Origin: Solirubrobacter pauli | GTDB taxonomy: Bacteria; Actinomycetota; Thermoleophilia; Solirubrobacterales; Solirubrobacteraceae | Length of the DNA stretch: 64,000 nt | Assembly: GCF_003633755.1 (NCBI RefSeq) | Contig: NZ_RBIL01000002.1 | Location: forward strand, 372,001-436,000 | Reading direction: 5' to 3' | Shown: piece by piece, positions 30,694 to 31,451 of the stretch | How the letters are laid out: each line of letters begins with the position of its first letter | Position numbering within the stretch: position 1 is the stretch's first letter | Position numbers and translations under genes: made by a program | Notes under the pieces: model-generated | The model's input: the letters and a program-made list of their open reading frames with translations, nothing else | Database searches by the model: none | What the model was told of the DNA's origin: nothing

Positions 30694-30782
30694 GTCGGTG
30701 CGCAGACCTCAAGCGGTGGGGCACCCCGGCCGAAGGAACTGCTAGGTCAAGAGCGGAAGTCCTTCTTCCTCTCTAGAAGCAA

Positions 30783-30882
30783 CTCCCACGACAAAGGCAC
30801 ACTCGCCGCGAGGCGAGGTCGCAAAGCCACGGGGCTCCTGCCTCCACAGGAGCACGCCGGGCTGCCGAACGGGTCATGGGAG
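30783..30882 (+). ncRNA. Cyclic di-GMP-I (GEMM-I) riboswitch aptamer
   Basis: The 100-base leader segment fits the GEMM-I consensus. Outer stem P1 is CTCCCA (30783-30788) with TGGGAG (30877-30882). The conserved ACAAAGGCACAC strand follows. A first hairpin CTCGCC-GCGA-GGCGAG has the required GNRA tetraloop. The signature GTCGCAAAGCCACGGGGC comes next, then a second hairpin GCTCCTG-CCTCCA-CAGGAGC and the tetraloop-receptor-like GCCGGGCTGCC. Order and conserved bases match the V. cholerae Vc2 type by eye. It precedes the CAP-domain gene by 38 bases, so that gene should respond to cyclic di-GMP. Confidence 0.85.
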
Positions 30883-30901
30883 CCGCAATTCCATGCCCGT
30901 T
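30868..30901 (+). promoter_or_regulatory. Putative expression-platform hairpin of the riboswitch
   Basis: AACGGGTCATGG (30868-30879) can pair with CCATGCCCGTT (30891-30901), leaving one bulged base. This hairpin uses the 3' strand of aptamer stem P1, so ligand-bound P1 and this hairpin are mutually exclusive. It ends a few bases before the GAGGGGAG ribosome-binding site (30905-30912). Control of translation or termination is inferred; no T run follows the stem. Confidence 0.55.
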
Positions 30902-30920
30902 CCCGAGGGGAGCTTCAGCC

Positions 30921-31451
30921 ATGCGCCGCATCCGTCAGCTCGTCGCTTCGTCCGTCATCGCCGTGTCCGCCTGCGTCGCCGCCCCGGTCGCCGCCGAGGC
31001 CGCGGCCTGCGCCGGCGCCGACTCCGTCCCGTCGGCCACCACGCAGGAGGCGCACGCCACGCTCTGCCTCCTGAACGAGCAGCGCCGCGCCCACGGCCTG
31101 CGCCCGCTGCGCCTCGACGGCAAGCTCGGCCGCGCCGCCCGCGCCCACGCCGAGGACATGGTCGCCAAGCGCTACTTCGCGCACGAGTCCAAGAGCGGTG
31201 CCACGTTCGCGACCCGCATCAAGCGCACCGGCTGGACCAAGTCGCGCCGCTCGTACACGATGGGCGAGAACATCGCCTGGGGCGGCGGCTCGCTCGCCAC
31301 CCCGCGCGCGATCGTCCGCAGCTGGATGAACAGCGCCGGCCACCGCGCGAACATCCTCGCCCGCGACTTCCGCTTCATCGGCATCGGCATCGCCGCCGCG
31401 ACCCCGGAAGGCGGCGCGGGCGGCACCTACGCCACCGACTTCGGGGGCTGA
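30921..31451 (+). CDS. Secreted CAP/SCP-domain protein
   Basis: A 176-residue exported protein: signal peptide at residues 1 to about 28 (VIAVSACVAAPVAAEAAA), then a bacterial CAP/SCP domain with the characteristic pattern LCLLNEQRRAHGLRPL, AHAEDMVAKRYFAHES, TMGENIAWG and MNSAGHRANIL, which includes the His and Glu cavity residues. Bacterial CAP proteins are secreted, often biofilm- or spore-associated. ATG 30921 follows GAGGGGAG by eight bases. The cyclic-di-GMP aptamer in the leader suggests expression is linked to the sessile/motile switch. Confidence 0.93.
   Translation: MRRIRQLVASSVIAVSACVAAPVAAEAAACAGADSVPSATTQEAHATLCLLNEQRRAHGLRPLRLDGKLGRAARAHAEDMVAKRYFAHESKSGATFATRIKRTGWTKSRRSYTMGENIAWGGGSLATPRAIVRSWMNSAGHRANILARDFRFIGIGIAAATPEGGAGGTYATDFGG

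What the first reader, a model, noticed from the sequence alone, without database searches (positions are those of the whole stretch)
30783..30901. Cyclic-di-GMP-I riboswitch with a mutually exclusive hairpin in front of a secreted CAP protein
All GEMM-I elements are present by eye: P1, GNRA hairpin, CGCAAAGCC signature, second hairpin and receptor-like strand. The 3' strand of P1 can instead pair with 30891-30901, giving a ready-made switch. It would link a secreted CAP-domain protein to the cyclic-di-GMP lifestyle signal.
Basis: partly seen in the sequence, partly recalled or inferred. Interest (0 to 1): 0.7.

Follow-up and report, generated by a model that had tools for sequence, protein, structure and literature searches.

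The report
Cyclic-di-GMP switch before secreted CAP gene
In a soil bacterium (Solirubrobacter), an RNA switch of a well-known kind that senses the signal cyclic di-GMP sits in front of a gene for a secreted CAP protein; the switch itself is ordinary, but it and its relatives on pilin genes lie behind a promoter type that a second cyclic-di-GMP sensor may also control.

Summary
Window 30787-30870 (+) is a c-di-GMP-I (GEMM-I) aptamer: RF01051 62.5 bits (cut-off 35), RF03167 'c-di-GMP-I-GGC' 62.2 bits (cut-off 59). Rfam's first label is the 'GGC' variant, but the residue at which that model departs from RF01051 (Vc2 A47) is the ordinary A here, and G20 and C92 are ordinary too, so c-di-GMP is the expected ligand. 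The competing hairpin (30868-30901, -17.8 kcal/mol) is real and forms in three further Solirubrobacter orthologues; it excludes only the outer three pairs of P1. The P1 5' strand can also pair with the ribosome-binding site, which suggests a translational switch, more likely ON than OFF; unproven. The CAP link recurs: a second CAP gene of the genome and CAP genes of other genera carry the aptamer. New here: CAP and pilin riboswitches usually lie behind FliA/WhiG-type promoters (32/40, against 15/54 other targets and 1-2% of shuffles), and the genome encodes WhiG, FliA and the c-di-GMP-dependent anti-sigma factor RsiG. Double control by c-di-GMP is inferred, not shown. The riboswitch itself is a new member of a known kind.

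The parts
30709..30736 (+). probable FliA/WhiG-type promoter, TCAAG-N15-GCCGAAGG
   Evidence: 9 of 13 matches to TAAAG / GCCGATAA, weak alone (12.5% of shuffles), but at the position where S. phytolaccae, S. taibaiensis and S. deserti have 11/13 sites
30783..30787 (+). P1 5' flank CUCCC, possible anti-ribosome-binding-site strand
   Evidence: pairs with GGGGAG in the folded leader
30785..30790 (+). P1, 5' strand CCCACG
   Evidence: pairs with 30866-30873
30787..30870 (+). c-di-GMP-I aptamer
   Evidence: RF03167 62.2 bits; RF01051 62.5 bits
30796..30796 (+). G at the Vc2 G20 position
   Evidence: model alignments
30797..30822 (+). P2 hairpin with GCGA tetraloop 30808-30811
30823..30823 (+). A at the Vc2 A47 position (the RF03167 consensus has G)
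30825..30863 (+). P3 hairpin
30865..30865 (+). C at the Vc2 C92 position
   Evidence: model alignments
30866..30873 (+). P1, 3' strand CGAACGGG
30868..30901 (+). competing hairpin; 30868-30881 pairs with 30889-30901 around one bulged U
   Evidence: -17.8 kcal/mol, z -3.9; also forms in three orthologues
30905..30912 (+). ribosome-binding site GAGGGGAG
   Evidence: sequence, 8 nt before ATG 30921
30921..31451 (+). secreted CAP-domain protein, 176 aa
   Evidence: PF00188 70 bits, cut-off 21.1

Best explanation
A bona fide c-di-GMP-I riboswitch in the 5' leader of a secreted CAP-domain gene of a Solirubrobacter species. [quoted passage not shown] If P1 is not held, the 3' strand joins the hairpin 30868-30901 and the freed P1 5' strand (CUCCC) can cover the ribosome-binding site GGGGAG. 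This makes it a translational switch, more likely ON than OFF with c-di-GMP. Transcription probably starts from a FliA/WhiG-type promoter, as for the riboswitched pilin genes of the same lineage. Shown by computation: the aptamer, its ligand residues, the competing hairpin, the recurrent CAP and pilin targets and the promoter enrichment. Inferred: ligand binding, direction of control, which sigma factor is used, and any role of RsiG.
For: RF01051 and RF03167 both above cut-off. G20, A47 and C92 canonical and invariant in 33 aligned relatives. Orthologous aptamers before CAP genes in four other Solirubrobacter genomes and aptamers before a second CAP gene and before CAP genes of other genera. 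Hairpin in four distinct orthologues. P1 5' strand pairs with the ribosome-binding site with probability 0.67-0.99 in leaders ending at AUG, and forcing P1 opens the site in all four. 53 GGDEF domains in the genome. Promoter type enriched.
Against: No binding or expression data. The folding signal for ON shrinks or reverses when 12 more coding bases are included. Pair counting on the small hairpin alignment is not significant. The window's own promoter match is weak. S. soli lacks the aptamer before its orthologue.
Confidence: 0.88

Rival explanations
1. The element is a true member of the 'c-di-GMP-I-GGC' variant (RF03167) and senses a different, unidentified signal.
For: Rfam ranks RF03167 first for the window, and many related aptamers pass its cut-off.
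Against: RF01051 scores the same (62.5 against 62.2 bits); Rfam itself labels two orthologues RF01051; the residue at which the variant consensus departs (G for A47) is A here and in the relatives read.
Confidence: 0.06
2. The switch works as OFF: c-di-GMP binding frees the hairpin 3' arm or leaves the ribosome-binding site closed, and CAP protein is made when c-di-GMP is low.
For: In S. deserti with 12 coding bases added, forcing P1 closes the ribosome-binding site (0.45 to 0.14). It would fit RsiG logic, in which high c-di-GMP holds WhiG back (PMC8325347).
Against: In leaders ending at AUG all four orthologues point to ON.
Confidence: 0.35
3. A decayed or non-regulatory aptamer relic.
For: S. 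soli lacks the aptamer in front of its orthologue.
Against: Core residues, both stems and the competing hairpin are kept in three other species although flanking sequence differs.
Confidence: 0.05

Closest known systems
c-di-GMP-I (GEMM-I) riboswitches, RF01051 (type example V. cholerae Vc2)
   Same: Aptamer architecture, GNRA tetraloop, signature CGCAAAG, G20/A47/C92, position in a 5' leader
   Different: Target is a secreted CAP protein; expression platform is a hairpin ending just before the ribosome-binding site, with no terminator
c-di-GMP-I-GGC variant, RF03167
   Same: Overall sequence similarity; passes the family's cut-off
   Different: Has A, not G, at the position where this model departs from RF01051
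[quoted passage not shown]
   Same: The genome encodes WhiG and a small single-motif RsiG; riboswitched pilin genes have the same promoter type
   Different: That paper's text does not mention riboswitches; here the leaders also carry a c-di-GMP aptamer; the local RsiG has H in place of Q in the published motif

Membership tests
c-di-GMP-I riboswitch (RF01051) | covariance model score above the gathering cut-off | tested here: met
   62.5 bits against 35
c-di-GMP-I riboswitch (RF01051) | G20, A47, C92 ligand contacts | tested here: met
   G30796, A30823, C30865 by model alignment; invariant in 33 relatives
c-di-GMP-I riboswitch (RF01051) | GNRA tetraloop on P2 | tested here: met
   GCGA 30808-30811
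c-di-GMP-I riboswitch (RF01051) | c-di-GMP binding and ligand-dependent expression | not testable with these tools
   needs in-line probing and reporters
c-di-GMP-I-GGC variant (RF03167) | covariance model score above the gathering cut-off | tested here: met
   62.2 bits against 59
c-di-GMP-I-GGC variant (RF03167) | G in place of A47 (inferred from the model consensus CGCGAAG) | tested here: not met
   window reads CGCAAAG
FliA/WhiG regulon | -35 TAAA and -10 GCCGATAA with suitable spacing | tested here: inconclusive
   window site 9/13; orthologues 11/13; strong enrichment over the riboswitch set
FliA/WhiG regulon | transcription start mapped at that promoter | not testable with these tools
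   needs 5'-end mapping
CAP superfamily (PF00188) | CAP domain above the cut-off | tested here: met
   70 bits against 21.1

The most novel reading that the evidence does not exclude
In Solirubrobacterales one second messenger gates the same transcripts twice: at initiation through WhiG and its c-di-GMP-dependent anti-sigma factor RsiG, and again in the mRNA leader through a c-di-GMP-I riboswitch, with type IV pilins and secreted CAP proteins as shared targets. If the riboswitch is ON, output would peak at intermediate c-di-GMP; if OFF, the two layers would sharpen one switch.
Probability: 0.4. Interest if true: 0.68.

Novelty: new member of a known kind. Interest (0 to 1): 0.42.

Why it matters
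CAP-domain proteins are widespread secreted proteins whose bacterial roles are mostly unclear (own knowledge). Their repeated placement under c-di-GMP riboswitches, beside pilin genes, ties them to the motile/sessile decision in a little-studied lineage. The overlap of FliA/WhiG-type promoters with c-di-GMP riboswitches offers a directly testable case of two-layer control by one messenger. It also shows that an RF03167 label need not mean the variant ligand pocket.

Tried and rejected
Strict RF03167 membership: rejected, because the departing residue is canonical. Transcription terminator: rejected; no T run follows the hairpin, and the one terminator-like match is on the other strand and within chance. 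A DNA pattern for the published RsiG motif gave chance-level hits, one in an SMC-like protein; the real RsiG was found with PF22802 and has H for Q. Pair counting on the automatic four-sequence hairpin alignment was uninformative. CAP relatives outside Solirubrobacter fetched by sequence carry no convincing aptamer (best other match 10.6 bits, E 0.45). The papers that define the variants are not held. A five-species leader alignment misplaced S. soli because the wrong stretch was given; S. soli was read by eye instead. A start at the in-frame ATG 30876 was set aside: it lies inside the hairpin, while 30921 has a ribosome-binding site and a signal-peptide-like start.

Full report
The observation. 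Rfam finds one RNA family in the whole window, RF03167 c-di-GMP-I-GGC, at 30787-30870 (+), 62.2 bits, cut-off 59, E 2.8e-12. A genome-wide search with RF01051 finds the same place at 62.5 bits, cut-off 35, E 2e-11, as one of five in the genome. P2 carries a GCGA tetraloop, the signature CGCAAAGCC is at 30820-30828, and P3 is at 30825-30863. The aptamer folds with z -3.7; the competing hairpin 30868-30901 with z -3.9 at -17.8 kcal/mol.

Which ligand. Rfam's top label is the 'GGC' variant. The variant's consensus reads CGCGAAG where RF01051 reads CGCAAAG. That A is, by my numbering from the model alignments, A47 of Vc2, the base that stacks between the two guanines and whose mutation is reported to prevent binding (PMC9049102). 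The window has A there (30823), G at 30796 (G20) and C at 30865 (C92). The aptamers read from the window's order also have A at this site, and the ligand residues are invariant in an alignment of 33. Rfam labels two orthologues RF01051. I conclude that the GGC label reflects overall similarity here and that c-di-GMP is the expected ligand. The papers that define the variants are not held, so the meaning of 'GGC' is inferred from the model.

The switch. The P1 3' strand CGAACGGG can pair with CCCACG upstream (P1) or, from A30868 on, with CCAUGCCCGUU downstream. The outer CCC/GGG part of P1 is incompatible with the hairpin; the inner two C-G pairs are not. The hairpin forms in the window and in three further orthologues (S. 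phytolaccae, S. taibaiensis, S. deserti), whose inner stems differ in sequence. Counting pairs on the automatic alignment of four sequences shows no significant covariation: the inner arms are misaligned and the set is small. In leaders ending at the AUG, the freed P1 5' strand pairs with the ribosome-binding site with probability 0.98, 0.74, 0.99 and 0.67, and forcing P1 raises the openness of that site in all four (0.17 to 0.39, 0.12 to 0.56, 0.00 to 0.43, 0.26 to 0.32). With 12 more coding bases the effect shrinks or, in S. deserti, reverses. The anatomy thus favours translational control, and ON over OFF only moderately. Forcing full P1 costs 10-14 kcal/mol in the longer leaders, so the decision is probably kinetic: the aptamer is complete about 30 nt before the competing arm. 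That last step is inference.

The target. The ORF 30921-31451 is a 176-aa CAP-domain protein (PF00188, 70 bits). The genome has eight CAP domains. Two lie behind c-di-GMP-I aptamers: the window gene and one at G000:C3:231293. The other three riboswitches precede a type IV pilin, a GH5-like secreted protein and an S8 protease. CAP genes with the aptamer also occur in other genera of the family (L060, L071). CAP relatives outside Solirubrobacter that were fetched by sequence carry none. In S. soli the orthologue lacks the aptamer but keeps a promoter-like TAAAG-N15-GCCGACGG.

The promoter. The published WhiG/flagellar consensus is -35 TAAA, -10 GCCGATAA (PMC8325347). In the 100 nt before the aptamer, at least 10 of 13 consensus matches occur in 21 of 25 pilin leaders, 11 of 15 CAP leaders and 15 of 54 others, against 0.8-1.8% of shuffles. 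Pilin plus CAP against the rest gives Fisher p 9e-7, but loci from related genomes are not independent. In this genome the same promoter type precedes a flagellin gene and genes that look like flgB and motA. The genome encodes WhiG (290 bits; best solved relatives are the sigma chains 6pfj and 6pfv, deposited with an RsiG homologue), a second FliA/WhiG-family sigma factor beside flagellar-looking genes, a 108-aa single-motif RsiG (PF22802, 73.9 bits; matches the RsiG structures 7lq2-7lq4) and 53 GGDEF domains. The window's own site is weak (9/13, reached by 12.5% of shuffles) but lies where its orthologues have 11/13 sites. Which sigma factor reads it, and whether RsiG is involved, is not shown. 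Full-text searches found no paper with riboswitch, c-di-GMP and Solirubrobacter, nor with CAP domain; only an open-licence library was searched.

Verdict. The finding is real and, in essence, correctly read: a canonical c-di-GMP-I riboswitch on an unusual target. The riboswitch is a new member of a known kind. The added point, the overlap of c-di-GMP riboswitches with FliA/WhiG-type promoters on pilin and CAP genes, is the part worth following up.

Noticed in passing
L127 (S. soli DSM 22325), upstream of the CAP orthologue: The orthologue lacks the aptamer but keeps a promoter-like TAAAG-N15-GCCGACGG: a natural riboswitch-free allele, lost or never gained.
   Followed up: partly
L195 (G000:C2:1775691-1775906): RsiG of this genome has H in place of Q in the published c-di-GMP motif E(X)3S(X)2R(X)3Q(X)3D.
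   Followed up: partly
L034 near 1534 and 2416; L013 near 1534 and 1596; L061 near 980 and 1034: Places with two aptamer signatures close together: two pilin-associated copies 882 nt apart in L034, and possible tandem aptamers in L013 and L061.
   Followed up: no
window 30876-30920: An ATG inside the competing hairpin is in frame with the CAP start at 30921 (15 codons upstream, no stop between); probably chance, but it could matter to the switch.
   Followed up: no
L006, L008, L011, L012, L014, downstream of the aptamer: The second CAP family has a different platform, with a hairpin of the form GTCGGGTC ... GACCCGAC before its start codon.
   Followed up: no
L197 (G000:C1:1667381): A FliA/WhiG-type promoter site lies just before an ORF whose start reads like an EAL phosphodiesterase domain (by eye), a possible feedback on c-di-GMP level.
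   Followed up: no
window 30785-30812, - strand: A terminator-like hairpin with a T-rich tail on the strand opposite the aptamer; within chance expectation.
   Followed up: no
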